In this document: positions 42,624 through 60,879 of the stretch, piece by piece
Layout of the letters: each line of letters opens with the position of its first letter
How positions within the stretch are numbered: the first letter of the stretch is position 1
From: Aminobacter niigataensis
GTDB taxonomy: Bacteria > Pseudomonadota > Alphaproteobacteria > Rhizobiales > Rhizobiaceae
Assembly: GCF_014200015.1 (NCBI RefSeq)
Contig: NZ_JACHOT010000002.1
Location: forward strand, 1-64,000
DNA length: 64,000 nucleotides
Direction of reading: 5' to 3'
Notes under the pieces: generated by a model
What the model saw: only the letters and a program-made list of their open reading frames with translations
Databases searched by the model: none
Told to the model about the DNA's origin: nothing
Translations under genes and position numbers: made by a program

Positions 42624-42760
42624 GCAGGTGCGCTTGCGCGACGGCGTAGGCGTCCCTCGCAGCCAGGCTCTCTTCCACGGTTTAGGGATAACGTCGCGCA
42701 CGACGATACAAACACTTGGCTCGTGCCGCCGATCACGCGACCGTGCCTCCGGAGTTCGGA

Positions 42761-43672
42761 TCAATCCGCCTGTTGACCGCCCTGCCATGCCCCCATGATC
42801 ATGCGACGGAAGTGTTCGGCAGCGGGTGAAAGCGTGGCAGCGCGCCGGCGGACGATGCCGATCGTCCGGGAAATCAGCGGATTGCCCAGCGGCCTCGTGA
42901 TGATGATGGGATGATCGGGTCCGGGTGTCGCCGTGCGCGGAAGCACGGAAATCCCGAGGCCTGCCTCCACCAGGCCGAGCGAGGTCGACAGGTGCGTCAC
43001 CTCGTAGGACCACCGCAGTTCGATGTTCGACCGCGCAAGCGTCGCGTCGAGCATGGTGCGGTTGCCGCTGGAGCGGTGCACGGTGATCAGCGGGTACGGC
43101 GCCAGATCCATCCAGCCGACCTCCTGCCGCATCGCCAGGGGATGATCGCGCCGCGCCGCCAGCACGAACGGATCTTCGGCGATGCGATCGAAGATGAGCT
43201 CCGGGTCTGAGGTGCCGATGAAGTTGATCCCGAATTCCACTTCGCCGCGCGAGACGGCCTGCAGCCCCTCCGTCGCCGTCAGGTCGAGGATGCGGAAGCG
43301 GATGTCGGGATATTCCTGGTTGAACTGCTTGATCACCGTCGGCAGGAAATAGAAGGCGGCAGTCGGCAGGCAGGCGATCGTCACCAGCTCGCTTCGCCGC
43401 ACGCCCCGACCGCGGGCCGCAAAGAGGGAGCTGTCGAACTCCTCCAGCATGCGCTGCACCAGCGGCACAAGTTCGAGGCCGAGCGCGGTGGGCGAAACAT
43501 GCCGGGTGGTGCGCTCCAGAAGCGGCGCACCTATCGATGCCTCCAGCTTCTGGATGCGGCGGCTGAGCGCCGGCTGCGACAGGTTCAGGGCATCGGCCGC
43601 CCGGTGAAAGCTTTCAAGCTCGACGACGCCGAGAAAAGCCCTGAGATCGAGGATTTCACAATTGATGCTCAT
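42761..43672 (-). CDS. LysR family transcriptional regulator (divergent to tctC)
   Basis: A 303-residue regulator. The N-terminal winged helix (about 5-65) has AADALNLSQPALSRRIQKLE, and the C-terminal two-lobed ligand domain follows. It is transcribed away from the tricarboxylate transporter gene tctC with 178 bases between, the standard layout for a LysR activator that senses the transported compound. A candidate LysR box is at 43703-43719. Confidence 0.9.
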   Translation of the reverse strand: MSINCEILDLRAFLGVVELESFHRAADALNLSQPALSRRIQKLEASIGAPLLERTTRHVSPTALGLELVPLVQRMLEEFDSSLFAARGRGVRRSELVTIACLPTAAFYFLPTVIKQFNQEYPDIRFRILDLTATEGLQAVSRGEVEFGINFIGTSDPELIFDRIAEDPFVLAARRDHPLAMRQEVGWMDLAPYPLITVHRSSGNRTMLDATLARSNIELRWSYEVTHLSTSLGLVEAGLGISVLPRTATPGPDHPIIITRPLGNPLISRTIGIVRRRAATLSPAAEHFRRMIMGAWQGGQQAD

Positions 43673-43702
43673 GACGCATCACTGCTCCAAAATTTTGCAC
43701 TT

Positions 43703-43719
43703 AACTTAATAATCCAGTT
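43703..43719 (+). promoter_or_regulatory. Candidate LysR box upstream of tctC
   Basis: AACT-N9-AGTT forms an interrupted inverted repeat inside an AT-rich stretch between the divergent lysR and tctC genes. It fits the T-N11-A rule and lies about 130 bases before tctC. Confidence 0.45.
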
Positions 43720-43805
43720 GGCGCATATGCCTCAAGGGTGAAACGACGAAGATCATGCCCGCCGATGGCGATCATGGGACTTGGCGTTTCCAATCGTTAT
43801 GTGTA

Positions 43806-43820
43806 CGTTTGTATACATTT
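43806..43820 (+). promoter_or_regulatory. GntR-type operator candidate (site A) at tctC
   Basis: CGTTTGTATACATTT contains the perfect 8-base palindrome TGTATACA (43810-43817), 31 bases before the tctC start. Related sites occur at 47182, 53380, 57953 and 58059. Confidence 0.55.
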
Positions 43821-43850
43821 GAACGCATAGCTATTTTGGGGAGGAAAAAC

Positions 43851-44951
43851 ATGGCTGATTTTACGCGTCGTCAACTGCTTGCCGCCGGCTCCGCCGCAGC
43901 GGTACTTGGACTAGGCGGAGTGCGCCCGGCATTTTCGCAGGCCTCGGTCGATTTCGCCGGCAAGACCGTCGAATGGTGGATGCCCTTCTCCGAGGGCGGC
44001 GGTTCGGACGTCTGGGCGCGATTCTTCGCCCCCTATCTCTCGAAATATCTTCCGGGCAACCCGAACGTCGTGGTCCGGAACGTGCCCGGCGGCGGGTCGA
44101 TCACCGGGTCGAACGAATTCGTCGCCCGCGCGCGGCCCGATGGGCTTGCGATCCTTGGCACGTCGGGATCGACGCAGTTTCCGTTCCTGCTCGGCGATCC
44201 ACGCGTGCGCTACGATTACGCCAAGCTCATTCCCGTACTCGTCTCGCCGACGGGCGGCGTCTGCTACCTGCCCGCCAAGTTCGGCGTCAAGACGCCGGCC
44301 GAACTGAACAAGATCAAGGACCAGGACCTGGTCTACGGCAGCCAGGGCGCGACCTCGCTCGACCTCGTGCCGATGCTTGCCTTCCGCCTGCTCGGCCTCA
44401 AGGTCCGCCATGTGTTCGGCATGCAGGGGCGCGGCGACGGCCGCCTTGCCTTCGAACGCGGCGAAGCGACGATCGACTACCAGACCTCCTCCGCCTACCT
44501 GACCAACGTCACCCCGCTCGTCGAGGCCGGCACGGCCGCTCCGATGTTCTCCTGGGGCGTCCTCGACGCCCAGGGCAACGTCGCCCGCGATCCGACATTC
44601 CCCGACCTTCCCCACTTCGTCGAAGCCTACGAGATGATGCATGGCAAGAAACCGTCCGGCATCGAATATGACGCCTACCTCGCCTTCTTCGGCTCCGGCT
44701 TCGCGGCCCAGAAGCCCTGCATGCTGCCGGAAGGCACGTCGGACGACATCGTTGCGACCTATCGCAAGGCCTTTGCCGACGCCGTGGCCGATCCGGAACT
44801 ACAGAAGGCCAAGGGCGACGTTCTCGGCGACTACACGCAGGCCGTCGGCAGCGACATCGAGCAGCTCTACAAGGTCGCCACGACGATCAAGCCCGAAGCG
44901 CGTGACTGGGTGCGCAACTTCCTGAACACGGAATACCAGGTCAAGCTCTGA
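43851..44951 (+). CDS. tctC: Tripartite tricarboxylate transporter binding protein TctC (Bug family)
   Basis: A 366-residue periplasmic solute-binding protein that captures a carboxylate and delivers it to TctA/TctB. The signal sequence FTRRQLLAAGSAAAVLGLGG has paired arginines before the hydrophobic core, so Tat export is possible instead of Sec. The mature part starts near residue 31 and has the Bug-type VEWWMPFSEGGGSDVWARFFAPYLSKYLPGNPNVVVRNVPGGG segment. GGGGAGG precedes the ATG at 43851. The carboxylate bound is unknown; the neighbours suggest a tricarboxylate. A GntR-type site and a LysR box lie upstream. Confidence 0.92.
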   Translation: MADFTRRQLLAAGSAAAVLGLGGVRPAFSQASVDFAGKTVEWWMPFSEGGGSDVWARFFAPYLSKYLPGNPNVVVRNVPGGGSITGSNEFVARARPDGLAILGTSGSTQFPFLLGDPRVRYDYAKLIPVLVSPTGGVCYLPAKFGVKTPAELNKIKDQDLVYGSQGATSLDLVPMLAFRLLGLKVRHVFGMQGRGDGRLAFERGEATIDYQTSSAYLTNVTPLVEAGTAAPMFSWGVLDAQGNVARDPTFPDLPHFVEAYEMMHGKKPSGIEYDAYLAFFGSGFAAQKPCMLPEGTSDDIVATYRKAFADAVADPELQKAKGDVLGDYTQAVGSDIEQLYKVATTIKPEARDWVRNFLNTEYQVKL

Positions 44952-44961
44952 TCGACAGAGT

Positions 44962-44985
44962 GCCCGCCGCCGACAGGCGGCGGGC
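44962..44985 (+). promoter_or_regulatory. Intercistronic hairpin between tctC and the TctA-TctB gene
   Basis: A perfect 10-bp stem, GCCCGCCGCC with its complement, closes on a GACA loop ten bases past the tctC stop. No U-run follows, so it more likely protects the tctC message and allows higher expression of the binding protein than of the membrane subunits. Confidence 0.6.
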
Positions 44986-45092
44986 AAGCCTGCACGACGC
45001 CTGTCGGCGCTCGAACATCCACCTGCCGACATTGACCAGGCTGGCGCGAAGGCGCCGCCCAGCAACTGTTGCCCATCGAAAGGACAGCCACA

Positions 45093-47117
45093 GTGATCGA
45101 TGTGTTCGTCACTTCGCTCCAGAACCTGCTGACCCTCCACCACCTCAGCTACATGATGATCGGCGTTGCGATCGGCCTCGTCGTCGGCATCCTGCCGGCG
45201 CTCGGCGGCATTGCCGGCATGTCGCTGCTGCTGCCATTCGTCTACGGCATGGAGCCGACCGCAGCGATTGCGATGATGGTCGGCCTGCTGGCGGTCATTC
45301 CCACCTCCGACACCTTCTCCTGCATCCTCATGGGCATTCCGGGGTCGTCCGCCTCGCAGGCGACAGTGCTCGACGGCTTCCCCCTCGCCCGCAAGGGCGA
45401 AGCAGCACGCGCGCTGAGTGCGTCTTTCTCGGCGTCCATGATCGGCGGCCTTTTCGGCGCGCTGTGCCTGACCGCCATCGTCATCGTGGCGCGTCCGCTC
45501 ATCCTGAGCTTCACCTCGGCCGAACTGTTCATGCTGGCCATTTTCGGCCTGTCCATGGTGGGCGTGCTGTCGGGCAGCAGCCTCGCCAAGGGCGTGGCCG
45601 CCTGTGCGCTGGGCCTCGCCTTCGGGGCGATCGGCACCGCTCCGGCAAATGGCGGCGAACGCATGACCTTCGATTCGCTGTACCTGATGAGCGGCCTCGA
45701 GATCACCATCATCGGCCTCGGCATCTTCGCGCTGCCGGAAGTGCTCGACCTGCTGCGCGGCCAGACAAGCATCTCGAGCACCGGCAAGCTCGGCCAAGGC
45801 TGGCTGACCGGCGTGCGCGACACCTGGCGGGAAAAGTGGCTGACGCTGCGCTGCGCGACGATCGGGGCCTGTGTCGGCCTGATGCCGGGCCTTGGCGGCA
45901 GCGTTTCGGACTGGATCTCCTACGGCCACACCGTCCAAAGCGCCAAGGACAAGTCGCAATTCGGCAAGGGTGACATCCGTGGCGTCATCGGCCCGGAAGC
46001 GGCCAACAATTCCTGCGCCGGCGGCAACCTGATCCCGACCCTGCTGTTCGGCATCCCCGGCTCCGGCTCGATGGCGATCTTTCTCGCCGCGATGATCCTG
46101 ATCGGGCTGCAACCAGGGCCCGGCATGGCCGATCCGAAGCGCGACCTCGACCTCACCTATACCGTGGTCTGGACGCTGGCGCTCGCCAACGTCGTCGGCA
46201 CCGCGGCCTGCATCGCCCTGTCGCCGAGCATCGCGCGCCTCACGACGATCCGCTTCGTGCTGTTCGCGCCCTTCATGATCCTCATCATCGTCTTCGGCGC
46301 ATTCCAGTCGACCCGCTCCTTCGAGGACATCCTGGCCCTGCTGGTCATAGCGCTGACGGGCATCTTCCTGAAGCGCTTCGGCTGGCCCCGACCGGCCTTC
46401 CTCATCGGCTTCGTGCTTGCCGGCCAGGTCGAGACCTATTTCTACCAGGCGGTCCAGTTCTACGGCTATGGCTTCCCGCTTCGGCCCATCGCCGTCGCCA
46501 TCGCACTGATTACGATTGCCTCGCTCTGGTTCACCAGCCGGTCGCGCCAGGCCCCGAAGGAGGAAACCGTCCCCGGCGGCATCACGACCGACATCGACTT
46601 CGAGCGCGAGGAAGACGAAACGGCCGCCGCCAAGAACCTGTGGCCGCAGGTGATCTTCACCGCTGTCACCTTCGGCTTCTTCATCTTCACGATCGCCGAA
46701 GGCGCACAGAACTCGTTCCTCGACGCGGTGTTCCCGGTCTCGGTGGGAATTGTCGGCCTCCTCACTGCCGCCTTCGTGCTGTTCTGGCAGGTCAGGGGCG
46801 CGACGGGACGTGGGCCGGCAGGCACCGTCAATTTCGATCTCGATGACGGCGCGAGCAGCGGCAGCCTGTGGCGGTTCGTCGGCTGGCTGGTCGGCTTCGT
46901 CATCGCGATTGGCCTTCTCGGCTTCACCCTCGCACTCGTCGGCTTCTTCCTGACGTTCCTGAAGGTCGTCGCCAAATCAAGCTGGCTGCAGGCGAGCGTC
47001 CTGACCGCTGCAGCCGTCGGCCTGGTGCTGGTGCTGACGTCGATCCTCAACATGAACCTGCCGGGCGGCCTGCTGCAGCACTACTTCTACAGCCAGCTGG
47101 TCTGGCCCCTGCGCTGA
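45093..47117 (+). CDS. tctA: TctA-TctB fusion: membrane subunits of a tripartite tricarboxylate transporter
   Basis: A 674-residue membrane protein. Residues about 1-500 are a complete TctA large subunit with the duplicated glycine-rich signatures GILPALGGIAGMSLLLPFVYGM and GLMPGLGGSVSDWISYG, plus GIPGSSAS and GIPGSGSMAIF. After an acidic linker (DIDFEREEDETAAAK, near residue 505) come about four more helices that match a TctB small subunit in size and position. No separate tctB is present, which supports the fusion. It starts at a GTG (45093) behind AAAGGA and ends at a strong terminator. Confidence 0.9.
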   Translation: MIDVFVTSLQNLLTLHHLSYMMIGVAIGLVVGILPALGGIAGMSLLLPFVYGMEPTAAIAMMVGLLAVIPTSDTFSCILMGIPGSSASQATVLDGFPLARKGEAARALSASFSASMIGGLFGALCLTAIVIVARPLILSFTSAELFMLAIFGLSMVGVLSGSSLAKGVAACALGLAFGAIGTAPANGGERMTFDSLYLMSGLEITIIGLGIFALPEVLDLLRGQTSISSTGKLGQGWLTGVRDTWREKWLTLRCATIGACVGLMPGLGGSVSDWISYGHTVQSAKDKSQFGKGDIRGVIGPEAANNSCAGGNLIPTLLFGIPGSGSMAIFLAAMILIGLQPGPGMADPKRDLDLTYTVVWTLALANVVGTAACIALSPSIARLTTIRFVLFAPFMILIIVFGAFQSTRSFEDILALLVIALTGIFLKRFGWPRPAFLIGFVLAGQVETYFYQAVQFYGYGFPLRPIAVAIALITIASLWFTSRSRQAPKEETVPGGITTDIDFEREEDETAAAKNLWPQVIFTAVTFGFFIFTIAEGAQNSFLDAVFPVSVGIVGLLTAAFVLFWQVRGATGRGPAGTVNFDLDDGASSGSLWRFVGWLVGFVIAIGLLGFTLALVGFFLTFLKVVAKSSWLQASVLTAAAVGLVLVLTSILNMNLPGGLLQHYFYSQLVWPLR

Positions 47118-47123
47118 ACTTCC

Positions 47124-47149
47124 GCCCCGGCGGCAACGCCGGGGCTTTT
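47124..47149 (+). terminator. Rho-independent terminator after the TctA-TctB gene
   Basis: A perfect 9-bp stem GCCCCGGCG/CGCCGGGGC around a GCAA tetraloop is followed by TTTT. It lies seven bases past the stop codon. It separates the transporter transcript from prpF, which must have its own promoter. Confidence 0.9.
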
Positions 47150-47169
47150 GCATGCCGATTTTCAGAGTG

Positions 47170-47196
47170 TGCAATTGCATCCAATTGTCGACATTA
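47170..47196 (+). promoter_or_regulatory. Operator candidate (site D) at prpF
   Basis: A perfect palindrome TGCAATTGCA (47170-47179) overlaps CAATTGTCGACATTA (47182-47196), which aligns with the GntR-type sites of the region. The 12-mer GCATCCAATTGT here (47177-47188) is repeated exactly at the gntR/abrB site (53375-53386). Confidence 0.5.
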
Positions 47197-47211
47197 CCGA
47201 ACGAGGTCACC

Positions 47212-48315
47212 TTGCCCGCACAACACGCCATTCCCTGTATCCTCATGCGCGGAGGAACATCGAAGGGACCCTATTTCAAGATGCAGGATATCCCGCAGGA
47301 CCCAGATGTCCGCGCGCGGGTGCTGCTGGCCGCCATGGGCTCGCCCGACATCCGCCAGATCGACGGCATCGGCGGCGCCGATACGCTGACCAGCAAGGTC
47401 GCGATGGTCGGCCCGTCCGACCGGGAAGGCGTCGATGTCGACTATCTCTTCGCACAGGTTTCGGTAGACAAGGCAATCGTCGACACCTCGCCCTCCTGCG
47501 GCAACATGCTGTCCGGCGTCGGCCCCTTCGCCATCGAGATGGGCATGGTGCCGGTCAACGGCGAAAAGACCAGCGTCGTCATCTACGACATCAACACCCA
47601 GAGCCGCATCGAGGCGATCGTCGAGACGCCGGACGGTGTCGTCAACTACGAGGGCAAAGGGCGGATCGACGGGGTCCCGGGCACGGCGGCCGAGATCCGG
47701 CTCAATTTCATGGACATCGTCGGCTCGAAGACGGGCACCCTGTTGCCGACGGGCAAGCCGGTGGAGGTGATCGACGGGGTCAAGGCCACGCTCATCGACG
47801 TCGCGGTGCCGATGATGATCGTCCGCGCCGCCGACCTCGGCAAGACGGGCTATGAGTCAGCCACGGAACTCGATGCCGACAAGGATTTCTTCGCGCGCAT
47901 GGAAGCGATGCGCATGGAAGCGGGCCGGCGCATGGGCCTCGGCGACGTGACCGGCAAGGTGGTGCCGAAGATGGCCATGCTGGCGGCGCCGCGCGAGGGC
48001 GGAAGCGTCGCCGCCCGCTACTTCGTTCCGCACAAGACCCACGCGGCCTTCGCCGTCACCGGCGGGCTGTGCGTCTCCTCCTGCGTGCTGGTTCCCGGCA
48101 CGGTGGCAGCCGGCATCGCCAACCGGCCCGAAGGCGACGACTGCACGGTGATCATCGAGCATCCGACCGGCGTCATCGACGTCGCCATGACGACGAGGCC
48201 CGACGGCAACTCCGTCGAGATCATCAGCGGCGGCGTCGTGCGCACCGCGCGCAAGCTGATGGAAGGCACCGTCTTCGTGCCCGCCGCCACGCTGGCATCG
48301 ACGCCGGCGGCCTGA
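47212..48315 (+). CDS. prpF: PrpF family isomerase (aconitate/methylaconitate or 4-oxalomesaconate type)
   Basis: A 367-residue protein with the diaminopimelate-epimerase fold of the PrpF group. The hallmark start is IPCILMRGGTSKG, followed by TSKVAMVGPS with K62 and SPSCGNMLSGVGPFAIE with C96, the likely acid-base pair by analogy with PrpF. Relatives isomerise trans- and cis-(methyl)aconitate or tautomerise 4-oxalomesaconate (GalD). In this cluster conversion of trans-aconitate to cis-aconitate is attractive but unproven. I choose a TTG start at 47212 with a GAGG site; an ATG at 47152 would lie just past the terminator and read through the operator. Confidence 0.88.
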   Translation: MPAQHAIPCILMRGGTSKGPYFKMQDIPQDPDVRARVLLAAMGSPDIRQIDGIGGADTLTSKVAMVGPSDREGVDVDYLFAQVSVDKAIVDTSPSCGNMLSGVGPFAIEMGMVPVNGEKTSVVIYDINTQSRIEAIVETPDGVVNYEGKGRIDGVPGTAAEIRLNFMDIVGSKTGTLLPTGKPVEVIDGVKATLIDVAVPMMIVRAADLGKTGYESATELDADKDFFARMEAMRMEAGRRMGLGDVTGKVVPKMAMLAAPREGGSVAARYFVPHKTHAAFAVTGGLCVSSCVLVPGTVAAGIANRPEGDDCTVIIEHPTGVIDVAMTTRPDGNSVEIISGGVVRTARKLMEGTVFVPAATLASTPAA

Positions 48316-48366
48316 GCCGCTGGCCGCCCAAACAACGGCATACCCGCTTCTGGAGTCCGTAACATC

Positions 48367-49425
48367 ATGAAACTGCTTGTCCTTCCCGGCGATGGCATCG
48401 GCCCTGAAATCGTCGGCGCGACCGTGGCGGTGCTGGATGCGGTCGACCGCCGCTTTTCGCTCGGCTTCAGCTACACGACACGGGACATCGGCCTCGCATC
48501 ACTGCAAAAGATCGGCACGACGCTGCCGCCAGACCTGCTCAAGCAGGCGCGCCGAATGGACGGAACCCTGCTCGGCCCGATTTCCACTCTGGACTATCCG
48601 CCCCGCGACAAGGGCGGTATCAACGTCTCGGCTGCCTTCCGCACCCAGCTCGACCTCTTTGCCAACATCCGCCCCGCACGCACCCGCGAGGGCGTCTTCC
48701 ATCGCGGCACGGCGATGGACCTCGTCATCATGCGGGAGGCGACGGAGGGCATGTATCCCGACCGCAACATGTATGCCGGCAACGGCGAATACATGCCAAC
48801 GGAAGACATGGCGATCTCGATGCGCAAGGTGACGGCAACGGCAAGCGAGCGCATCGCAAGGGCTTCCTTCGAACTGGCGCGGAGGCGCCGCAAGAAGGTC
48901 ACGGCGGTGCACAAGGCGAATGCCTTCGTCCTGACCGACGGACTGTTCCTGAAGGAGGTGCGCAAGGTCGCAGCCGACTATCCCGACGTGCAGTTGGAGG
49001 AGGTCCTGATCGACGCGATGGCCGCACTGCTGGTTCGCGACGCAAGTCGCTACGACGTGATCTGCACGACCAACTTCTACGGCGACACCCTGTCCGACCT
49101 GGCTTCCGAACTCTCCGGCAGCCTGGGCCTGGCAGGCTCCCTGAATGCCGGAACGGACAATGCCGCCGCCCAGGCCCAGCACGGCTCAGCGCCCGACATC
49201 GCCGGCCAGGACAAGGCCAATCCGACCTCCATGATCCTGTCGGCGGCGATGCTTTTGCACTGGCACGGCGAGCGTTCGGGCGACCCGCGCCACGTCGAGG
49301 CCGCGACCTTGATCGAGCGCACCGTCGACCGGGTCATCTCCAACGCTGCGACCCGTACCGGCGACCTCGGCGGGCCACTCGGCACGAAGGCGTTCACCGA
49401 CACCCTCATCGCCGCTTTGGGCTGA
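48367..49425 (+). CDS. Isocitrate/isopropylmalate dehydrogenase family enzyme
   Basis: A 352-residue NAD(P)-dependent beta-decarboxylating dehydrogenase. It has the N-terminal LLVLPGDGIGPEIV, the substrate loop FANIRPARTREG, a catalytic lysine region KVTAVHKANAFVLTDGLF, and the metal-binding signature TTNFYGDTLSDLASELSGSLGLAGSLN. The substrate-loop sequence matches neither leucine-pathway LeuB nor housekeeping Icd closely, so a dedicated 2-hydroxy-tri- or dicarboxylate is likely. It follows prpF by 51 bases and is probably co-transcribed. The product would be a 2-oxo acid. Confidence 0.87.
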   Translation: MKLLVLPGDGIGPEIVGATVAVLDAVDRRFSLGFSYTTRDIGLASLQKIGTTLPPDLLKQARRMDGTLLGPISTLDYPPRDKGGINVSAAFRTQLDLFANIRPARTREGVFHRGTAMDLVIMREATEGMYPDRNMYAGNGEYMPTEDMAISMRKVTATASERIARASFELARRRRKKVTAVHKANAFVLTDGLFLKEVRKVAADYPDVQLEEVLIDAMAALLVRDASRYDVICTTNFYGDTLSDLASELSGSLGLAGSLNAGTDNAAAQAQHGSAPDIAGQDKANPTSMILSAAMLLHWHGERSGDPRHVEAATLIERTVDRVISNAATRTGDLGGPLGTKAFTDTLIAALG

Positions 49426-49437
49426 ACTGGAGACGAA

Positions 49438-49468
49438 GACGGCGCGTGGGCCTTGCCCTCGCGCCGTC
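49438..49468. terminator. Hairpin between convergent dehydrogenase and RraA genes
   Basis: A perfect 9-bp stem GACGGCGCG (49438-49446) with CGCGCCGTC (49460-49468) and a 13-base loop lies 12 bases past the dehydrogenase stop and 34 bases past the rraA stop. Without a U-run it may still end transcription from both directions. Confidence 0.5.
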
Positions 49469-49502
49469 GCGATCGATGGGTCACCATGTGGCCCTAGCCC
49501 AG

Positions 49503-49997
49503 TCAGCCCGCCTGATGCACGGCCTTGTCGGCCACCAGAACGCCGTCCGCGTCGGCATAAAGATATTGCCCCGTACGGAACTCGACGTTGCCGAAAGCAA
49601 GCGGCACGTCGCGTGCACCGTGGCCCGTCTTGCCGCTCTTCTTCGGCGCCTGGCCGAGCGCCATAACGCAGAAGTCCATGGCATCGATATCGGCGCTGTC
49701 GCGGATCGCGCCGTGGATCAGCAGCCCGCGCCAGCCATTCGCCAGGCCGAGGGCCGCGATCTGGTCGCCGACCAGGGCACAGCGCAGCGATCCGCCTCCG
49801 TCGACGACGAGAACCCTGCCCGTGCCGTCGCTTTCGAGCGTTGCCCGCAGCAGCCGATTGTCCTCGAAGGTCTTCAGCGTGACGACTTCGCCATGAAATC
49901 CCTTGCGCCTGCCGTATGTTTTCCATTGCATTTCGCAGAAGCGCACCTCGGCGTCGTTGCTATCGACCAGGTCCGCCGTCTTAACGATGTCCGTCAC
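49503..49997 (-). CDS. RraA family protein (aldolase/decarboxylase type)
   Basis: A 164-residue protein starting at a GTG (49997) behind GGAGGAAG. The motif GDQIAALGLANGWRGLLIHGAIRDSADI (GD...G..G....G..RD) defines the RraA/HMG-aldolase family; the Arg-Asp pair binds the enolate and metal in the aldolases. Family members either inhibit RNase E (RraA) or cleave 4-hydroxy-4-carboxy-2-oxo acids and decarboxylate oxaloacetate. In a catabolic cluster next to a dehydrogenase, the enzymatic role is more likely. The first 17 bases overlap the upstream hydroxyacid dehydrogenase gene. Confidence 0.85.
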   Translation of the reverse strand: MTDIVKTADLVDSNDAEVRFCEMQWKTYGRRKGFHGEVVTLKTFEDNRLLRATLESDGTGRVLVVDGGGSLRCALVGDQIAALGLANGWRGLLIHGAIRDSADIDAMDFCVMALGQAPKKSGKTGHGARDVPLAFGNVEFRTGQYLYADADGVLVADKAVHQAG

Positions 49998-50970
49998 GAT
50001 CTTCCTCCCTCTTCGGCTCGGCCAGCAGCCGTATGGGCGCGCCGGCGCGCCAGGCCTTAATATTCTCGACCGCATCACGATAGAAGGCCCCATAGGCACC
50101 CTCGGTCACATAGCCGAGATGCGGCGTCAGCACGGTATTGGGCGCCGTGCGCAACGGATGGCCGGCCGGAAGGGGCTCGATGTCGAAGACGTCGAGTCCG
50201 GCCTTGATCCGCCCCTGCCGAAGCGCCTGCACCAGGGCCGCCTCGTCCACCAGCGGCCCGCGTGCGGTGTTGATCAACCACGCGCCCTGTTTCATCTGTC
50301 CGAGTTCGCCGGCCCCGACGACACGCCGGCTTCGCTCGCTGAGGACGAGGTGCAGCGACACCACATCGGCCTCGCGAAACAGCGTCTCCTTGTCGACGCG
50401 GCGTGCGCCGGTCTCGGCGGCGCGTTCGTCCGTCAGGTTCGGGCTCCAGGCGATCACCTCCATCCCGAACGCCTTGGCGATCGGCACCATGCGTCCGCCC
50501 AGCTTGCCGAGCCCGACGAGCCCCAGCGTCCTGCCGCCGATGATCGTGCCGACCGTTTGCTGCCATCCCCCCGCCCGGATGCGGGCGTCCTCCTCGGGGA
50601 TCGAACGGGCGAGCGCCAGGATCAGCCCCCATGCGATCTCCGGCGTTGCATGGGCGGATTCGCCCGCATGGGTGTGACAGACGGTGATGCCGTGATCGAC
50701 CGCCGCCTCCATGTCGATGGTGCGCACGCGAGCGCCGGTGACAACCACCAGCTCCAGGGCCGTCAGCCTGCCGAGCAGCGAGGCCGGCAGCGGCATGCGC
50801 TCCCGCATGAGGCAGAGCACGTCGAAACCGGCGAGAGCGCGGGCGGCTTCGTCCTCTGTTGCGAGGTTCCGGCCAAAACGGACGATCTCGCAATCATCGC
50901 CGAGCGAGGCCCAGTCGGCAAGCGAGAGTGCCACATCCTGATAATCATCGAGGATCGCGATACGGAGCAT
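49981..50970 (-). CDS. D-2-hydroxyacid dehydrogenase
   Basis: A 329-residue NAD(P)-dependent oxidoreductase of the D-isomer-specific family. The Rossmann motif is GLVGLGKLGGRM; the catalytic residues are in NTARGPLVDE (Arg), GLDVFDIEPLP (Glu) and LTPHLGY (His). It would interconvert a 2-oxo acid and the D-2-hydroxy acid. Its 3' end overlaps rraA, so they work together, possibly on a 2-oxo or 2-hydroxy product of the aldolase. A GGAAAGG sequence precedes the ATG at 50970. Confidence 0.9.
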   Translation of the reverse strand: MLRIAILDDYQDVALSLADWASLGDDCEIVRFGRNLATEDEAARALAGFDVLCLMRERMPLPASLLGRLTALELVVVTGARVRTIDMEAAVDHGITVCHTHAGESAHATPEIAWGLILALARSIPEEDARIRAGGWQQTVGTIIGGRTLGLVGLGKLGGRMVPIAKAFGMEVIAWSPNLTDERAAETGARRVDKETLFREADVVSLHLVLSERSRRVVGAGELGQMKQGAWLINTARGPLVDEAALVQALRQGRIKAGLDVFDIEPLPAGHPLRTAPNTVLTPHLGYVTEGAYGAFYRDAVENIKAWRAGAPIRLLAEPKREEDRDGHR

Positions 50971-51038
50971 GCGTTCAGACCTTTCCAAGCGCGTCTGGAT
51001 CAAGGGAAATGCCCGCCCGCCCGGCATCGCGAGCCCGC

Positions 51039-51950: not shown

Positions 51951-52242
51951 GTCGCCCCTCCGTCAGTGCCGGCACGGCCGTGTGGTCGGCCAGAGCAAAG
52001 TCGCGTCTGATCCGCCCGAGCAGCCGGTCGTCGAAACGGTGCAGCCGATAGTCGGCGCAGCGCCGGACGAATGCCAGATACCGCTCGATAGCCACTATAG
52101 AATTGGTGAGGATGACCAGTGCCACGGCACGCTCCACCGACTGGAGATTGTTCTGTGTCCATGGTCTATCGGCTCCTGTTGCTGCCGTGTAGCGACGGTT
52201 GGCGAGGGCGGCATCTCGGTTGGGCAACACCCGCCATCTTCT
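51951..52242. other. Gap between abrB-like and lysR genes; possible gene remnant
   Basis: No firm gene. On the minus strand one frame gives a fairly protein-like stretch (SVERAVALVILTNSIVAIER and RRDFALADH), but it lacks a proper start, runs into lysR and matches no family I know. It may be a decayed gene or simply the leader of lysR. Confidence 0.3.
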
Positions 52243-53343: not shown

Positions 53344-53379
53344 CGGCAGGCGCCAAATCACGTCGCTCTATTCTGCATC

Positions 53380-53394
53380 CAATTGTATGCAATA
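53380..53394. promoter_or_regulatory. Operator candidate (site B) between abrB-like gene and gntR
   Basis: CAATTGTATGCAATA includes ATTGTATGCAAT, a near-palindrome with 10 of 12 symmetric bases. It lies between the divergent starts and shares the 12-mer GCATCCAATTGT with the prpF site. Autoregulation by GntR is likely. Confidence 0.6.
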
Positions 53395-53461
53395 CAGCAA
53401 GACCGTGGACAATGGCCAGTTCCTTCTATAGCCGGAATGTCCACACTGGAGAGAGCATGCG

Positions 53462-54121
53462 ATGACCGCATCGAAGGATCTGCTGTCCAAGACCCGCGGC
53501 CAGAGCACCTATCAGGCCATTCTGGCGGCCATCCGGGACGGCATATACCGGCCGGGCGACCCGCTGCGCGAGGAAGAGGTGGCGGCACGCCTGAGCGTCA
53601 GCCGGACGCCCGTCCGCGAGGCCCTCGGCCGGCTGCAGGAGAAAGGCCTTCTCGAGGCGGCACCGGGTCGCGGCGTCGCCGTGTCGATCCTGTCAATGCG
53701 GCAGATTTTCGAACTCTACGCCATGCGCGAAGAGCTCGAGGGCATTGTCGCCCGCTATGCCGCGCGACACGCAACCGAAGCCGAGATCGCCAATCTCGAA
53801 CGCCTCAACGCCCAATTCGCCGCCGCGGCCGACGATCCGAAGCTCGCCGCGCAATGGAACCGTCAGTTCCACGCCCGGCTCTACGATGCTGCCCGCAACC
53901 GCTACCTTCGCCAGGCCGTCGAAGACCTGCAGGAAACGATCGCGCTTCTGCCTGACACGACCTTCATCCAGGAAGGCCGCACGGCTACCGCGACCCAAGA
54001 GCATGTCTCCATCATGGAGGCAATTCGCCAACGCGACGCGGAAGGCGCGGAGAAGGCCGCCGTCGACCACATCAAGGCCGCGCTCGAAGTCCGCCTGATC
54101 ATCACCAAGACCGATAGCTGA
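53462..54121 (+). CDS. GntR family regulator, FCD subfamily
   Basis: A 219-residue regulator. The winged helix (about 15-78) ends in VSRTPVREALGRLQEKGLLEAAPGRGVAV. The all-helical FCD domain follows with its metal-binding histidine pattern (RQFHARLYDAARN, QEHVSIMEAI). FCD members typically sense carboxylic acids and bind TNGTNNNACNA-like palindromes, matching the TTGTATACA-type sites in this region. GGAGAG precedes the ATG at 53462. It is the best candidate for a cluster-wide repressor. Confidence 0.92.
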   Translation: MTASKDLLSKTRGQSTYQAILAAIRDGIYRPGDPLREEEVAARLSVSRTPVREALGRLQEKGLLEAAPGRGVAVSILSMRQIFELYAMREELEGIVARYAARHATEAEIANLERLNAQFAAAADDPKLAAQWNRQFHARLYDAARNRYLRQAVEDLQETIALLPDTTFIQEGRTATATQEHVSIMEAIRQRDAEGAEKAAVDHIKAALEVRLIITKTDS

Positions 54122-54172
54122 AACCGCTCGGCCGCCTGCCTCAGGCCAGACAGGGGCCCCGGCCGAGAACGC

Positions 54173-54910
54173 TCAGGCGAGTTGCATCAGTCCCGAGACG
54201 AAATAGACGGCGCCGATCCCGGTCACGATCCAGCGTGTCCAGGCGCGGAAATTCGCATCCGTCATGCGCTGCAGGATGATGTTTCCGGACCGTGTGCCGA
54301 GGACCGCGATGGGCACCGCCGCGACGACCGCGAGCCAGCCCTCCGACGAGAGCGTCAGCGCGGCGTCCCAATAGAATGCCACCTTCGTCGCATGGGTCAG
54401 GAACTGGATGGCAGCCTTGGTGGCGATGATCGTCCGCCTGTCCATTGCGGTACGGATGAAGAAGATGTCGATGCTCGGTCCCGAAACCCCGACGCTGATC
54501 GCCAGGCCGCCGGATATGAAGCCGCAGGCGTAGGCATGCAGCGGCTTCGACGCATCGAGTTCCAGCTTCTTGACCGGCACCCATACGAGAACCGGCATCA
54601 GGCCGATGACGATGGAGACGACGACGAGGCTCGGGCGGTAGGCGACGACGTACAGCAGGAGAGCGGCGCTGAGCAGCCCGGCGCTCAGGATGGCCAGGAT
54701 GCGCAGGTCCAGGTAGTCGCGCGAGAACCAGGCCCGCGATCCGTTCGAGACCATCTGCACCATGCCGTGGACCGCGATCGCGGTCGCCACCGGCACGAGG
54801 AAGAACAGGACCCAGAGCAGGATCATCCCGCCGGCCATTCCGAAGATGCCCGACAGCAGCGATGTCAGGAACACGGTGATCGTCATGCAGGCGAAGAGAA
54901 CAGCGGTCAC
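54173..54910 (-). CDS. TauE/SafE family membrane protein
   Basis: A 245-residue membrane protein with about eight helices and the TauE/SafE signature LSGIFGMAGGMILLWVLFFLVP near the N-terminus and GGLAISVGVSGPSIDIFFI in the second half. The family exports organic anions such as sulfite or sulfoacetate; here a carboxylate product is conceivable. It probably starts at a GTG (54910). It converges on gntR with 51 bases between. Confidence 0.85.
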   Translation of the reverse strand: MTAVLFACMTITVFLTSLLSGIFGMAGGMILLWVLFFLVPVATAIAVHGMVQMVSNGSRAWFSRDYLDLRILAILSAGLLSAALLLYVVAYRPSLVVVSIVIGLMPVLVWVPVKKLELDASKPLHAYACGFISGGLAISVGVSGPSIDIFFIRTAMDRRTIIATKAAIQFLTHATKVAFYWDAALTLSSEGWLAVVAAVPIAVLGTRSGNIILQRMTDANFRAWTRWIVTGIGAVYFVSGLMQLA

Positions 54911-54958
54911 GGATCGGTCCGGGATTGTCCGGGCGGAGGCGCCGGCGCGGGGTCGTTC

Positions 54959-55016
54959 GGCGGCAGGATCTGCCGCCGTCTTTTGGCATGGGCGCCGGAT
55001 TGATCGCCGGCGCCCA
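54959..55016 (-). terminator. Two tandem hairpins past the acnA stop
   Basis: GGGCGCCGG/CCGGCGCCC (54990-54998 with 55007-55015) lies 18 bases past the acnA stop. GGCGGCAG/CTGCCGCC (54959-54966 with 54970-54977) comes next. Both stems are perfect; neither has a clear U-run on the minus strand. They separate acnA from tauE. Confidence 0.6.
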
Positions 55017-55033
55017 CTTCGAGTTGTCCGCGC

Positions 55034-57724
<2,691 letters not shown>

Positions 57725-58128
57725 GTGCGATCCATCCTTGTCTGTTCAGCCTACACGGGAACGGACTCCGATGGCATGCAATCACGCGCAAAGGTGCGGG
57801 TACGGCCATTTCCGCTGTCCGGCCCCAAGCAACCCGAGCCGTTCAAGGCGGCGCGTGCGCTGGTTCGGCGCATATTCGCTTTCCATGCCGACCGCTGGCA
57901 TGGTCGAACTGGCATATAGCGGATTCCCGAAATCCCGCCACAAGAATGCATCCATTTGCATACTGCCATTAGGCGATTGGGGGCTTCTCCAAAGGCGAAG
58001 CCTTGTTTTCATTTCATTTTCATCGATCGAAAGGCAGTCACCCAGCCGTGGCCAACTTGACTGTATACAAATGTGTGCAATAAGGCACTGGAGGTCAAAT
58101 CAACGGCAGAGGCGGATCGGTTCCAGGG
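57725..58128. promoter_or_regulatory. Divergent promoter region of acnA and tcuAB with operator candidates
   Basis: This 404-base region has no credible gene. It contains a short hairpin CATGCC/GGCATG (57884-57902) and two members of the motif family: site E, CATTTGCATACTGCC (57953-57967), preceded by TGCATC, and site C, with the perfect TGTATACA palindrome (58062-58069) inside 58059-58073, 56 bases before tcuA. Confidence 0.55.
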
Positions 58129-59550
58129 ATGATTGGCGCATCGACAGAATACGACGTGCTCGTCGCCGGCGGCGGCAATGCCGCCCTGTGCGCGGCAATC
58201 AGCGCCAGGCGCGCGGGCGCCAGCGTGCTCGTCGTGGAAGCAGCCCCGCGCTTCTATCGGGGCGGCAATACCCGCCACACCCGCAACATGCGCTGCGCGC
58301 ACGACGCAGCAACGGAAACGCTCTCCGGCCCCTATTTCGAGGACGAGTTCTTCGACGACCTGCTGCGCGTGACCGGCGGCAACACGGACGAGGATCTGGC
58401 GCGCATGATGATCGCCGAATCCAAGCGGATGCTGACCTGGATCGCCGAGCAAGGCGTGCGTTTCCAACCCTCTCTCGGCGGCACACTCAGCCTGGGTCGC
58501 ACCAACTCCTTCTTCCTCGGCGGCGGGCGGGCCATGCTCAACGCCCTCTACCGGACCGCCGAAAGCCTCGGAGTCGAGGTCGTCTATGACGCGGAGGTCG
58601 TGGGCCTCGACATTGAAGGCCCGCAATTCCGCTCGGCTCGGGTCCGGCACGCCGGCAGGGAAACCGCCGTCCGGGCAAGGACCTTCGTCGCGGCCAGCGG
58701 CGGCTTCGAGGCGAACATCGAATGGCTGAAGGAGGGCTGGGGCGAGATCGCCGATAACTTCCTGATCCGCGGCACGCCCTACAATCGCGGCACGGTGCTG
58801 AAGATGCTGATCAACAGCGGCGTCAGGCACATCGGCGACCCGACTCAATGCCATGCCGTTGCGATCGACGCGCGCGCGCCGAAGTTCGACGGCGGCATCA
58901 TCACGCGTCTCGACTGCGTGGTCTTCGGCATCGTCGTCAACAAGCATGCCGAGCGGTTCTACGACGAGGGCGAGGACGTCTGGCCGAAGCGCTACGCCAT
59001 CTGGGGCCGTCTTGTCGCCGCCCAGCCCGACCAGATCGCCTATATCGTCTTCGACGCCTCGTCGCTCGAGCTCTTCATGCCGTCCCTCTTTCCGCCGGTG
59101 CAGGCGTCGACGCTGGGCGAGCTTGCCGGCAAGCTCGGGATCGAGGCCACAGCGCTCGAACGCACGGTCGCCGCCTTCAACGACGCGGTTCGGCCCGGCC
59201 ACTTCGACCACACGAGCCTCGACGACTGCCGCACCGAAGGCATCGAGCCCCAAAAGAGCCATTGGGCGCGGCGCATCGAGCAGGCGCCCTTTTATGCCTA
59301 TCCGGTCCGGCCGGGCATCACCTTCACCTATCTCGGCGTCAAGGTGGACCGCCGGGCGCGCATGGTGATGGAAGACGGACGGCCTGCCGACAACATGTTC
59401 GCCGCCGGCGAGATCATGGCCGGCAACGTGCTCGGCCAGGGCTATGCCGCAGGGATCGGCATGACCATCGGCAGCGTCTTCGGACGCATCGCCGGCCGCG
59501 AAGCCGCTGCACTCGTTTCGTCCACCTGCCCGTCGTCGGAGGCCGCATGA
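58129..59550 (+). CDS. tcuA: Tricarballylate dehydrogenase TcuA (FAD-dependent)
   Basis: A 473-residue flavoprotein of the fumarate reductase/succinate dehydrogenase flavoprotein-like family. The FAD loop is VLVAGGGNAALCAAISARRAGASVLVVEAAP and the C-terminal FAD-binding segment is FAAGEIMAGNVLGQGYAAGIGMTIG. RFYRGGNTRHTRNMR is characteristic of the TcuA group. In Salmonella TcuA oxidises tricarballylate to cis-aconitate. The tight overlap with tcuB supports that assignment. An alternative is another saturated carboxylate. Confidence 0.88.
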   Translation: MIGASTEYDVLVAGGGNAALCAAISARRAGASVLVVEAAPRFYRGGNTRHTRNMRCAHDAATETLSGPYFEDEFFDDLLRVTGGNTDEDLARMMIAESKRMLTWIAEQGVRFQPSLGGTLSLGRTNSFFLGGGRAMLNALYRTAESLGVEVVYDAEVVGLDIEGPQFRSARVRHAGRETAVRARTFVAASGGFEANIEWLKEGWGEIADNFLIRGTPYNRGTVLKMLINSGVRHIGDPTQCHAVAIDARAPKFDGGIITRLDCVVFGIVVNKHAERFYDEGEDVWPKRYAIWGRLVAAQPDQIAYIVFDASSLELFMPSLFPPVQASTLGELAGKLGIEATALERTVAAFNDAVRPGHFDHTSLDDCRTEGIEPQKSHWARRIEQAPFYAYPVRPGITFTYLGVKVDRRARMVMEDGRPADNMFAAGEIMAGNVLGQGYAAGIGMTIGSVFGRIAGREAAALVSSTCPSSEAA

Positions 59551-60680
59551 ACATCCACGCTCCGTTTGAGCCGGCGCATGCGACGGCAAGCCTCGCCGAG
59601 GCGGATCGCCTGATGACGGTCTGCAACTCCTGCCGCTATTGCGAAGGGCTCTGCGCCGTCTTTCCGGCAATGGAGATGCGGCGCGCCTTCTCGGACGGCG
59701 ATCTCAACTACCTTGCCAATCTCTGCCACAGTTGCGGCGCCTGTTTTCACGACTGCCAGTTCTCGCCGCCGCATGAGTTCGACGTGAACGTGCCTAAGAC
59801 GCTGGCGATCGTGCGCAACGACTCCTACCGTGCCTATGTCTGGCCGCGCGCCTTTTCAGGCCTTTTCCATCGCAACGGGCTGGCGATCAGCCTCATCGCC
59901 GCAGTGAGCGTCGCCGTCTTCGTCGCCGGCTTTGCTGCCTGGCACGATCCGTCCGTGCTGTTCGACGCGCATACCGGCCCGGGCGCCTTCTACAAGCTGA
60001 TGCCGCACGATGTCATGGCCCTGCTTTTCGGTGCGGCCTTTGCCTACGCCATCGTCGCCCTCGCCATGGGCGTCCGCAATTTCTGGAAGGACATCGGCGA
60101 ACCCTTGGCAACGCTCGGTGAACCTGCCTCGCTGTGGCAGGCGATCAAGGATGCCTGCAGCCTGCGCCATCTCGACGGCGGCGGCGTCGGCTGCATGAAC
60201 GAGGACGAGGCCCCGACCGACCGCCGGCGCCTCTATCATCACATGACGTTCTACGGTTTCATGCTCTGCTTCGCCGCCACGTCCACGGCGACGCTCTACC
60301 ACTACGTGCTCGGCATGGAAGCGCCCTACCCGGTCTACGATCTCCCTGTCGTGCTCGGCACGATCGGCGGCATCGGCCTCCTCGTCGGACCTGCCGGCCT
60401 TCTTCACGCGAAATGGCGGCGCGACCCCGTCCTCAAGGACGGCTCGCGCACCGGCATGGACGTTGCCTTCCTCGCCATGCTGTTCCTGACCAGCCTGACG
60501 GGGCTGCTGCTGCTCGTCCTGCGGGCCACGCCTGCCATGGGCCTGCTGCTCGCCCTCCACCTTGGCGTCGTCTTCAGCCTCTTCGTCACCATGCCCTACG
60601 GCAAGTTCGTCCACGGCATCTACCGGTTCCTGGCCCTGGTTCGCTACGCCAGGGAAAAGCGGCAGATCGGCGGCGCCTGA
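59547..60680 (+). CDS. tcuB: TcuB: iron-sulfur/heme membrane protein that reoxidises TcuA
   Basis: A 377-residue protein with two four-cysteine [4Fe-4S] motifs near the N-terminus (C26, C29, C32, C36 and C60, C63, C66, C70) followed by about six membrane helices with histidines suited to heme binding. In Salmonella TcuB passes electrons from TcuA's FADH2 to the quinone pool. The start is fixed by the ATGA overlap with tcuA. No TcuC-type MFS transporter follows; TctC/TctA-TctB may take over uptake. Confidence 0.9.
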   Translation: MNIHAPFEPAHATASLAEADRLMTVCNSCRYCEGLCAVFPAMEMRRAFSDGDLNYLANLCHSCGACFHDCQFSPPHEFDVNVPKTLAIVRNDSYRAYVWPRAFSGLFHRNGLAISLIAAVSVAVFVAGFAAWHDPSVLFDAHTGPGAFYKLMPHDVMALLFGAAFAYAIVALAMGVRNFWKDIGEPLATLGEPASLWQAIKDACSLRHLDGGGVGCMNEDEAPTDRRRLYHHMTFYGFMLCFAATSTATLYHYVLGMEAPYPVYDLPVVLGTIGGIGLLVGPAGLLHAKWRRDPVLKDGSRTGMDVAFLAMLFLTSLTGLLLLVLRATPAMGLLLALHLGVVFSLFVTMPYGKFVHGIYRFLALVRYAREKRQIGGA

Positions 60681-60879
60681 CCGAGAATCTGGTGAAGAGC
60701 ACTCTCAGAATATCGAGCCTGAATGGATCAAAATGCGGTGCGATGAAAAGCATTTGTATCCGGCATCTCTAATAAATGTTGATACCCATAGCCGGCGCTG
60801 TTGTGGCAAGGGCGGTTACTTTTCAGATTGCAGGAAGCGTGTTATCGACCCCCCACGGACAATTGTACTTGGGGGACCT

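What the first reader, a model, noticed from the sequence alone, without database searches (positions are those of the whole stretch)
42761..60680. Compact tricarboxylate-type catabolic region of unusual composition
Seen: TctC, a TctA-TctB fusion, PrpF, an isocitrate/isopropylmalate-type dehydrogenase, RraA, D-2-hydroxyacid dehydrogenase, AbrB- and TauE-type membrane proteins, AcnA, TcuA-TcuB, two LysR and one GntR/FCD regulator, all within 18 kb. Known: TcuA/TcuB oxidise tricarballylate to cis-aconitate in Salmonella; PrpF relatives isomerise aconitates; aconitase takes cis-aconitate to isocitrate. Inference: the region imports tricarballylate and/or trans-aconitate and feeds the TCA cycle. 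The combination with the dehydrogenase, RraA and hydroxyacid dehydrogenase does not match the classical tcuABC operon and suggests a second substrate or branch.
Basis: partly seen in the sequence, partly recalled or inferred. Interest (0 to 1): 0.75.

Follow-up and report, generated by a model that had tools for sequence, protein, structure and literature searches.

The report
Mobile tricarboxylate island with cloned aconitase
The region is an inserted island of genes that probably lets a soil bacterium feed on plant tricarboxylic acids, is marked by one private DNA signal, and carries a second copy of the cell's own aconitase gene that is kept nearly identical to the original.

Summary
Window ~42.62-62.28 kb is an insertion beside tRNA-Leu; its marker gene idh occurs in 2 of 10 genomes of the host genus. 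The same gene order, with three more genes, lies on two annotated Shinella plasmids; five plasmids of other alphaproteobacteria carry a core (tctC, tctAB, prpF, idh, tcuAB, gntR) in other orders. So the genes travel together. An 18-bp palindrome marks the tctC, gntR/abrB and tcuA promoters; these four sites are the only matches (up to 1 mismatch) in the 5.28-Mb genome: one private regulon.

The surprise is acnA. It is a second copy of the housekeeping gene with 201 bp of upstream DNA, 98.8% identical to the chromosomal copy but 82% to the acnA of the Shinella cluster; cluster acnA copies are not one clade (AU p = 1e-5). In the four draft genomes seen with the island, acnA breaks at contig ends as a collapsed repeat. 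This is concerted evolution. I infer tricarballylate/trans-aconitate catabolism to 2-oxoglutarate. The dehydrogenase lacks the isocitrate-dehydrogenase pocket signature, and the substrate of hydroxyacid dehydrogenase and RraA stays open.

The parts
42618..62280 (.). genomic island (19.7 kb) inserted between a block that is inverted in relatives (37.9-42.6 kb) and tRNA-Leu(CAA)
   Evidence: In same-genus G143 window 42617 abuts 62280 almost directly, in G153 with 2.3 kb of other DNA between; idh in 2 of 10 genus genomes; no exact repeat of 13 or more bases from the tRNA region found in 80 kb
42761..43672 (-). lysR1, LysR regulator divergent from tctC
   Evidence: PF03466 167 bits, PF00126 76 bits; relatives 52-81% identical stand divergent to prpF in other genomes
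43810..43827 (.). operator-like palindrome in front of tctC
   Evidence: 1 mismatch to TGNATNCAWWTGNATNCA, conserved in 5 aligned relatives
43851..44951 (+). tctC, periplasmic binding protein of a tripartite tricarboxylate transporter
   Evidence: PF03401 34.0 bits, cut-off 27
45093..47117 (+). tctA-tctB fusion permease (start not certain)
   Evidence: PF01970 387 bits; PF07331 20.8, under cut-off
47126..47150 (.). terminator-like hairpin with T run between tctAB and prpF
   Evidence: seen in the sequence printed, also in Shinella; not scored
47176..47193 (.). weaker operator-like site in front of prpF
   Evidence: 2 mismatches here, 1 mismatch in Shinella HZN7
47212..48315 (+). prpF, PrpF-superfamily isomerase (open frame from 47152)
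   Evidence: NF033377 498.7 bits, cut-off 440; TIGR02334 201.9, cut-off 440.55; nearest solved structure LigU 6p3j, E 3e-108
48367..49425 (+). idh, isocitrate/isopropylmalate-type dehydrogenase
   Evidence: PF00180 288 bits; no equivalog cut-off reached among 18 families listed; N-x-S in place of S-x-N
49503..49997 (-). rraA, RraA/aldolase-like
   Evidence: PRK09372 203.9, cut-off 136; PRK12487 165.9, cut-off 196
49981..50970 (-). D-2-hydroxyacid dehydrogenase
   Evidence: PF02826 186 bits; no equivalog cut-off reached
51039..51950 (-). lysR2; the Ldh gene that relatives carry between it and the hydroxyacid dehydrogenase is missing here
   Evidence: PF03466 127.5 bits
52243..53361 (-). AbrB-type membrane protein
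   Evidence: PF05145 251 bits, TIGR03082 206.9
53374..53391 (.). operator-like palindrome between abrB and gntR, perfect match
53462..54121 (+). GntR/FCD regulator, candidate reader of the operator
   Evidence: PF00392 72 and PF07729 96 bits
54173..54910 (-). TauE/SafE-type membrane protein; CoA transferase and second prpF of Shinella are missing between it and gntR
   Evidence: PF01925 57 bits
55034..57724 (-). acnA, second copy of the housekeeping aconitase
   Evidence: 33 base differences in 2691 and 2 residue differences from the copy on C4; tree and AU test
55035..57925 (.). duplicated unit: acnA and 201 bp upstream
   Evidence: 2891 bp, 98.8% identical to the housekeeping locus, ends at the stop codon
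57947..57964 (.). operator-like palindrome, distal to tcuA, 21 bases beyond the duplicated unit
58062..58079 (.). operator-like palindrome, proximal to tcuA
   Evidence: conserved in 5 aligned relatives
58129..59550 (+). tcuA, FAD tricarballylate dehydrogenase
   Evidence: 712.8 bits, cut-off 369
59547..60680 (+). tcuB, membrane iron-sulfur/haem electron carrier
   Evidence: CitB 481.3, cut-off 246.6; PRK15033 489.6, cut-off 524
60871..61551 (+). outer-membrane beta-barrel inside the insertion; link to the pathway not shown
   Evidence: PF13505 87.6 bits
62281..62365 (-). tRNA-Leu(CAA), right border of the insertion
   Evidence: ARAGORN

Best explanation
The region is a horizontally moving catabolic island for tricarballylate and/or trans-aconitate-type tricarboxylates. 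Shown: it is an insertion at tRNA-Leu; its gene order is shared with Shinella plasmids and its core with other alphaproteobacterial plasmids; its promoters share a private 18-bp palindrome; its acnA is a host-derived second copy kept like the chromosomal gene (concerted evolution). Inferred: the Tct transporter brings the acid in, TcuAB dehydrogenates tricarballylate to aconitate and passes electrons to the membrane, PrpF interconverts aconitate isomers, AcnA hydrates cis-aconitate to isocitrate, and Idh (or the housekeeping enzyme) yields 2-oxoglutarate; the GntR/FCD protein reads the palindrome, LysR1 senses the acid at the tctC promoter; D-hydroxyacid dehydrogenase, RraA and (in relatives) Ldh deal with a hydroxy or oxo acid in a side branch that is not identified. 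Gene conversion between the 2.9-kb island copy and the chromosomal acnA is the likely cause of their likeness.
For: TcuA/TcuB models; conserved order in Shinella and in the same site in G151; operator: 4 sites in the window against 0.03 expected, the same 4 and no others in the genome, reversed-pattern control 0; 39 sites in 33 cluster loci (645,782 bases), against 1 site in 61 unrelated idh loci (1,021,125) and 0 in 24 rhizobial loci (431,185). acnA: 98.8% to own chromosomal copy, 93.1-93.6% to four congeners, 82% to the Shinella cluster copies; one clade of cluster copies rejected, p-AU 1.02e-5; G151, with the island in the same site, has acnA 95.3% like the window's although tctC-idh is 93.3% and tcuAB 92.1%; broken acnA with shared contig ends in G151, G397, G402 and G406, one full-length acnA in the other 18 Shinella genomes. 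PrpF of tct loci is a distinct set: 2 label changes on the tree against 14.5 in shuffles. TarR/TarA/TarB precedent (PMC11495376: abstract and passages); TcuA/TcuB function (PMC10468695, PMC8593673: passages).
Against: No growth, expression or enzyme data. PrpF passes the 4-oxalomesaconate tautomerase model and fails the PrpF one. idh reaches no isocitrate-dehydrogenase cut-off and has N-x-S where solved NAD isocitrate dehydrogenases have S-x-N. Two clusters (L017, L018) have a 34% TcuA paralog and no tcuB or acnA; the Paracoccus clusters have no acnA or rraA. 17 of the 33 cluster loci have no operator match at one mismatch. The pattern was written from the window and its relatives, so only the more distant loci test it independently. 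G157, without idh, also has an acnA cut by a contig end. The collapsed copies are inferred from contig ends; two of the edges differ by one base.
Confidence: 0.6

Rival explanations
1. The island serves another acid: a hydroxylated or C7 tricarboxylate that runs over a 4-oxalomesaconate-like intermediate to an aldolase (RraA here, a LigK-type aldolase in Roseivivax), with Idh, Ldh and D-hydroxyacid dehydrogenase acting on the hydroxy acid; TcuAB is one entry among several.
For: PrpF passes the 4-oxalomesaconate tautomerase model, 498.7 against 440, nearest structure LigU; Roseivivax marinus has a PIG-L protein, a CHA aldolase and a second tautomerase next to the same core; Ldh-hadh-rraA carries the operator in 6 of 8 Rhizobiaceae loci where that Ldh was seen; idh lacks S-x-N.
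Against: In Roseivivax the tct-linked PrpF and the PrpF beside the aldolase fall into different groups of the tree, so the tct-linked one is probably not the tautomerase. No hydratase of that pathway was annotated in the window or in the two Shinella loci.
Confidence: 0.25
2. The likeness of the two acnA genes comes from separate recent duplications of the host gene into the cluster in each lineage, not from gene conversion.
For: Each island copy sits beside its host's gene in the tree; the promoter part is host-like too.
Against: In both genera the copy stands at the same place, between tauE and tcuA, ends at the stop codon, and begins 182-201 bp before the start codon; G000 and G151 share the insertion site and still differ in acnA.
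Confidence: 0.15
3. The region is a chance neighbourhood of unrelated transport and acid genes.
For: Several transcription units on both strands; idh relatives also occur away from tct and prpF (15 of 19 genome loci).
Against: Conserved order on Shinella plasmids, shared private operator.
Confidence: 0.03

Closest known systems
tcuRABC tricarballylate locus of Salmonella (TcuA dehydrogenase, TcuB electron carrier, TcuC transporter)
   Same: adjacent tcuA and tcuB over curated cut-offs (TcuB over one of two)
   Different: tripartite Tct transporter and AbrB/TauE-type proteins instead of TcuC; own acnA, prpF, idh, hydroxyacid dehydrogenase, rraA; GntR/FCD signal at the tcuA promoter
tar trans-aconitate system of Bacillus velezensis (TarR LysR, TarA PrpF-type aconitate isomerase, TarB importer; PMC11495376)
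   Same: LysR gene divergent from a unit that holds transporter and PrpF
   Different: transporter of another family, tcuAB, acnA and idh in the same regulon; activity of the window's PrpF unknown
Cluster on Shinella sp. HZN7 pShin-03 and WSC3-e plasmids (annotated, apparently not studied)
   Same: same genes in the same order, 81-86% DNA identity
   Different: the window has lost Ldh, CoA transferase and the second prpF, and sits beside a tRNA on a 650-kb contig
Sulfolactate clusters with two dehydrogenases of opposite handedness and a Tct transporter (recalled, not searched)
   Same: D-hydroxyacid and Ldh-type dehydrogenase plus tripartite transporter and TauE in relatives
   Different: no sulfolactate lyase was annotated; tcuAB, prpF and acnA present

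Membership tests
tricarballylate utilisation (tcu) locus | TcuA over its curated cut-off | tested here: met
   712.8 against 369; 595.1 against 372.55
tricarballylate utilisation (tcu) locus | TcuB over its curated cut-off | tested here: inconclusive
   CitB 481.3 against 246.6 met; PRK15033 489.6 against 524 not met
tricarballylate utilisation (tcu) locus | TcuC-type transporter in the operon | tested here: not met
   after tcuB comes a beta-barrel gene; the transporter of the island is TctC-TctAB
tricarballylate utilisation (tcu) locus | growth on tricarballylate | not testable with these tools
   needs a strain
4-oxalomesaconate tautomerase (GalD/LigU) | curated score | tested here: met
   498.7 against 440
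4-oxalomesaconate tautomerase (GalD/LigU) | catalytic Lys and Cys | tested here: met
   both letters present at the two positions changed in deposited LigU variants; their catalytic role is recalled
4-oxalomesaconate tautomerase (GalD/LigU) | groups with PrpF that stands beside oxalomesaconate hydratase and CHA aldolase | tested here: not met
   tree of 43 PrpF rows: the window is with tct-linked rows, the Roseivivax gene beside the aldolase elsewhere
2-methylaconitate isomerase PrpF | curated score | tested here: not met
   201.9 against 440.55
aconitate isomerase of the tar type | trans-aconitate isomerase activity | not testable with these tools
   needs purified protein
isocitrate dehydrogenase (NAD) | curated equivalog score | tested here: not met
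   best isocitrate model PRK08997 278 against 510
isocitrate dehydrogenase (NAD) | S-x-N pair before the substrate arginine | tested here: not met
   N-x-S in the window and in 32 of 34 rows examined; S-x-N in 6lky and 6ltf
aconitase AcnA | curated score | tested here: met
   1381 against 945
HMG/CHA aldolase (RraA-like) | curated aldolase score | tested here: not met
   PRK12487 165.9 against 196; the RraA model PRK09372 is met
tripartite tricarboxylate transporter | TctA, TctB and TctC domains | tested here: inconclusive
   TctA and TctC over cut-off, TctB 20.8 against 29.1
concerted evolution of paralogs | paralogs in one genome more alike than orthologs between genomes | tested here: met
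   98.8% within G000, 95.3% to G151, 82% to Shinella; p-AU 1.02e-5

The most novel reading that the evidence does not exclude
The island carries stand-ins for the enzymes that its own substrate poisons. Tricarballylate is reported to inhibit isocitrate dehydrogenase in Salmonella (PMC8593673, passage), and is recalled as an aconitase inhibitor. The island brings a second aconitase, held identical to the cell's own by gene conversion so that it always fits the host, and a dehydrogenase whose carboxylate pocket reads N-x-S instead of S-x-N, which could make it a tricarballylate-tolerant isocitrate dehydrogenase. A mobile catabolic island would thus use the host's housekeeping gene as a self-updating part.
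Probability: 0.25. Interest if true: 0.78.

Novelty: new variant of a known kind. Interest (0 to 1): 0.6.

Why it matters
It gives a testable unit for how bacteria use tricarballylate and trans-aconitate beyond the Salmonella and Bacillus systems, with a defined operator and a conserved gene set in plant- and sea-dwelling alphaproteobacteria. The acnA copy is a rare clear case of a mobile element whose central-metabolism gene is continually overwritten by, or with, the host's own; such genes would be missed or mis-dated by gene-transfer methods, and their collapse breaks draft assemblies. It also shows that the automatic name '4-oxalomesaconate tautomerase' is probably wrong for the tct-linked PrpF group.

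Tried and rejected
Rejected: acnA as a dedicated catabolic isozyme (two residues differ from the housekeeping protein). Rejected: overwriting of the chromosomal acnA by a Shinella plasmid copy; Shinella genomes with the cluster also form one clade on ccmA-ccmB (100/100), so their distinct acnA is explained by kinship. Rejected: tRNA attachment repeat; none of 13 or more exact bases. Considered: itaconate, propionate (2-methylcitrate) and protocatechuate/gallate pathways; their marker enzymes were not among the island's genes, except the tautomerase name. Considered: sulfolactate-type racemisation by two dehydrogenases (recalled; no lyase annotated). Searches for papers on this gene set (one search was on RraA) listed none that describes it; I saw capped lists of 6-20 titles, and most subscription papers are not held. 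Bosea vaviloviae has an acnA-idh pair on a plasmid, but that idh has the canonical S-x-N, so it is not the same arrangement. The plasmid relatives that I read in detail were picked from hit lists, not drawn at random.

Full report
What is there. In order: lysR1 (-), tctC and a tctA-tctB fusion (+), prpF and idh (+), rraA and a D-2-hydroxyacid dehydrogenase (-, overlapping), lysR2 (-), abrB (-), gntR/FCD (+), tauE and acnA (-), tcuA and tcuB (+). TcuA passes both tricarballylate-dehydrogenase models; TcuB passes one of two; the TctB half is under its cut-off. Nothing in base composition sets the island apart except a lower G+C at 60-62 kb.

It is an island. In G143, a genome of the same genus, window position 42617 lies next to position 62280, the edge of tRNA-Leu, with the 37.9-42.6 kb block inverted; in G153 the same block and the tRNA are 2.3 kb apart; for G156, the third genome read, only the right side aligned. 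Of ten genomes of the genus, two (G000 and G151) have the idh gene, and G151 has the island between the same neighbours. No attachment repeat was found.

It travels as a unit. Shinella plasmids of strains HZN7 and WSC3-e carry the genes in the same order and add three: an Ldh-type dehydrogenase next to the hydroxyacid dehydrogenase, and a CoA transferase with a second prpF next to tauE. G151 has the Ldh but not the other two; the window has none of the three. Three of 21 genomes of the Shinella group have the cluster (the group was recognised because contig length and acnA position of G404 equal those of Shinella sp. PSBB067). G024 and G125 of another genus have the whole set, Ldh, CoA transferase and second prpF included, but with a 34% TcuA paralog and without tcuB or acnA. 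Paracoccus alcaliphilus and P. marcusii, Thalassospira marina, Pacificitalea manganoxidans and Roseivivax marinus plasmids carry tctC, tctAB, prpF, idh, tcuA, tcuB and gntR in other orders; of 19 genome loci brought in by idh at 46% identity or more, 4 have tctC, tctAB and prpF, and one of these, a Pelagibacteraceae genome, also has an acnA.

It is one regulon. Upstream regions share an 18-bp palindrome, TGNATNCAWWTGNATNCA. With up to one mismatch the window has four sites (0.03 expected), at tctC, abrB/gntR and twice at tcuA, and the whole genome of 5,283,805 bases has these four and no others; the reversed control pattern has none. In 33 cluster loci (645,782 bases) there are 39 sites in 16 loci; 17 loci have none. 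61 unrelated idh loci (1,021,125 bases) have one site and 24 rhizobial loci (431,185 bases) have none. Since the pattern was written from the window, HZN7, G151, G402 and G406, the test that counts is in more distant loci: a site lies between gntR and tcuA in Thalassospira and Methylobacterium nodulans, between gntR and abrB in P. marcusii, between prpF and the hydroxyacid dehydrogenase in G004, and before the TcuA paralog in G024 and G125; a site in the Pelagibacteraceae locus is not next to a recognised gene. In six loci (G151, G397, G402, G406, HZN7, WSC3-e) a site stands 59-66 bases before Ldh, which leads the Ldh-hydroxyacid dehydrogenase-rraA unit; in G024 and G125 it was not seen there. 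So these enzymes belong to the regulon; in the window the Ldh gene and its site are gone. That the GntR/FCD protein reads the site is inference from its recurrence at the gntR promoter.

The aconitase. The host has two acnA genes, one here and one beside ccmAB, mdh and sucCD on contig C4. The two share 2891 bp at 98.8%: the coding sequence and 201 bp in front of it, ending at the stop codon. Of 33 coding differences 28 are in third positions; two residues differ. Against four congeners the window gene is 93.1-93.6% identical, against the Shinella cluster genes 82.0-82.1%, although the other island genes are 81-86% identical to Shinella's. A tree of 13 acnA genes puts the window copy with the host's own (100/100) and the two Shinella cluster copies with Shinella; a tree with the cluster copies as one clade is rejected (difference in log-likelihood 552.9, p-AU 1.02e-5). 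In draft genomes with the cluster, acnA is broken at contig ends on both sides: in G397, G406 and G151 the tcuA-side and the ccmA-side contigs, and the tauE-side and the housekeeping contigs, end in the same bases (identical stretches of 75-95; the 3' edge of G151 differs by one base in 100), and in G402 one contig holds the whole gene, whose ends match the other contigs (77 bases identical at the 5' edge, one difference in 117 at the 3' edge). The other 18 Shinella genomes have one full-length gene each. A caution: G157, which lacks idh, also has acnA cut by a contig end. G000 and G151 share the insertion site, so their island copies descend from one; yet the window copy is 98.8% like its own chromosomal gene and the G151 gene is 95.3% like it. 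This is concerted evolution, most simply by gene conversion. A control against overwriting by the plasmid: on ccmA-ccmB the Shinella genomes with the cluster also form a clade.

What it does. Known: TcuA turns tricarballylate into cis-aconitate and TcuB passes the electrons on (passages and a reference title in PMC10468695 and PMC8593673); a PrpF-type isomerase with divergent LysR and an importer makes trans-aconitate usable in Bacillus velezensis (PMC11495376, abstract and passages). Inference: import by Tct, dehydrogenation by TcuAB, isomerisation by PrpF, hydration by AcnA, oxidation by Idh or the housekeeping enzyme to 2-oxoglutarate. The weak links are PrpF and Idh. PrpF scores as 4-oxalomesaconate tautomerase (498.7 against 440) and its nearest solved structure is LigU. 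But on a tree of 43 PrpF rows the 23 with a tctAB gene close by need two label changes against 14.5 in shuffles, and in Roseivivax, which has both, the PrpF beside a PIG-L protein and a CHA aldolase is in another group than the tct-linked one; the tct rows are not shown to be one clade. So the automatic name is probably too wide. Idh reaches no equivalog cut-off and has N-x-S where NAD isocitrate dehydrogenases have S-x-N; 32 of 34 relatives examined share N-x-S, among them genes in quite other surroundings (Cupriavidus, Pantoea, Rhizobium NXC24 with 3-oxotetronate kinase). It keeps the Asp-Ile pair that marks NAD use in this family (recalled). RraA has an Arg-Asp-x2-Asp stretch like that of pyruvate aldolases (recalled motif; PMC5065237 passages say that most such homologs carry one of two aldolase motifs), but does not reach the aldolase model.

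Bold reading. A review passage states that accumulated tricarballylate inhibits isocitrate dehydrogenase in Salmonella (PMC8593673; the original papers are not held). An island that eats such a compound and brings a second aconitase and an altered-pocket dehydrogenase may be carrying stand-ins for the poisoned steps. Against it: the same dehydrogenase group occurs away from tcu genes.

Verdict. Observation confirmed; interpretation partly supported; the new parts are the private operator, the island borders and the concerted evolution of acnA.

Noticed in passing
L163 (Rhizobium bangladeshense), L042, L027, L028, L030, L032, L034: A LysR gene (67-81% like lysR1 in the loci) divergent from prpF, with an ABC transporter in L163: looks like a rhizobial counterpart of the Bacillus tar system.
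   Followed up: partly
L167 17609-20050 (Roseivivax marinus plasmid): PIG-L protein, CHA aldolase and a second tautomerase, a lower gallate-type module, directly beside the tct-prpF-idh-tcu core.
   Followed up: partly
L056 (Pelagibacteraceae AG-895-L23): tctC-tctAB-idh-prpF core with an acnA gene at 60% identity in a SAR11-type genome.
   Followed up: no
L160 8001-11759 (Bosea vaviloviae plasmid): acnA followed by a canonical S-x-N isocitrate dehydrogenase-type gene and genes for polyhydroxyalkanoate; another plasmid-borne aconitase (84% identical protein).
   Followed up: no
window 37900-42617: Block with a flippase-like gene that is inverted relative to G143 and G153.
   Followed up: partly
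L046 (G008) 789-9929: TcuA paralog within 10 kb of an acnA-like gene of 49% identity, perhaps AcnD-type.
   Followed up: no
L127 22917-24317 (Shinella HZN7): CoA transferase of 466 residues with about 200 N-terminal residues outside the family III domain and only its first 204 of 366 profile positions matched.
   Followed up: no
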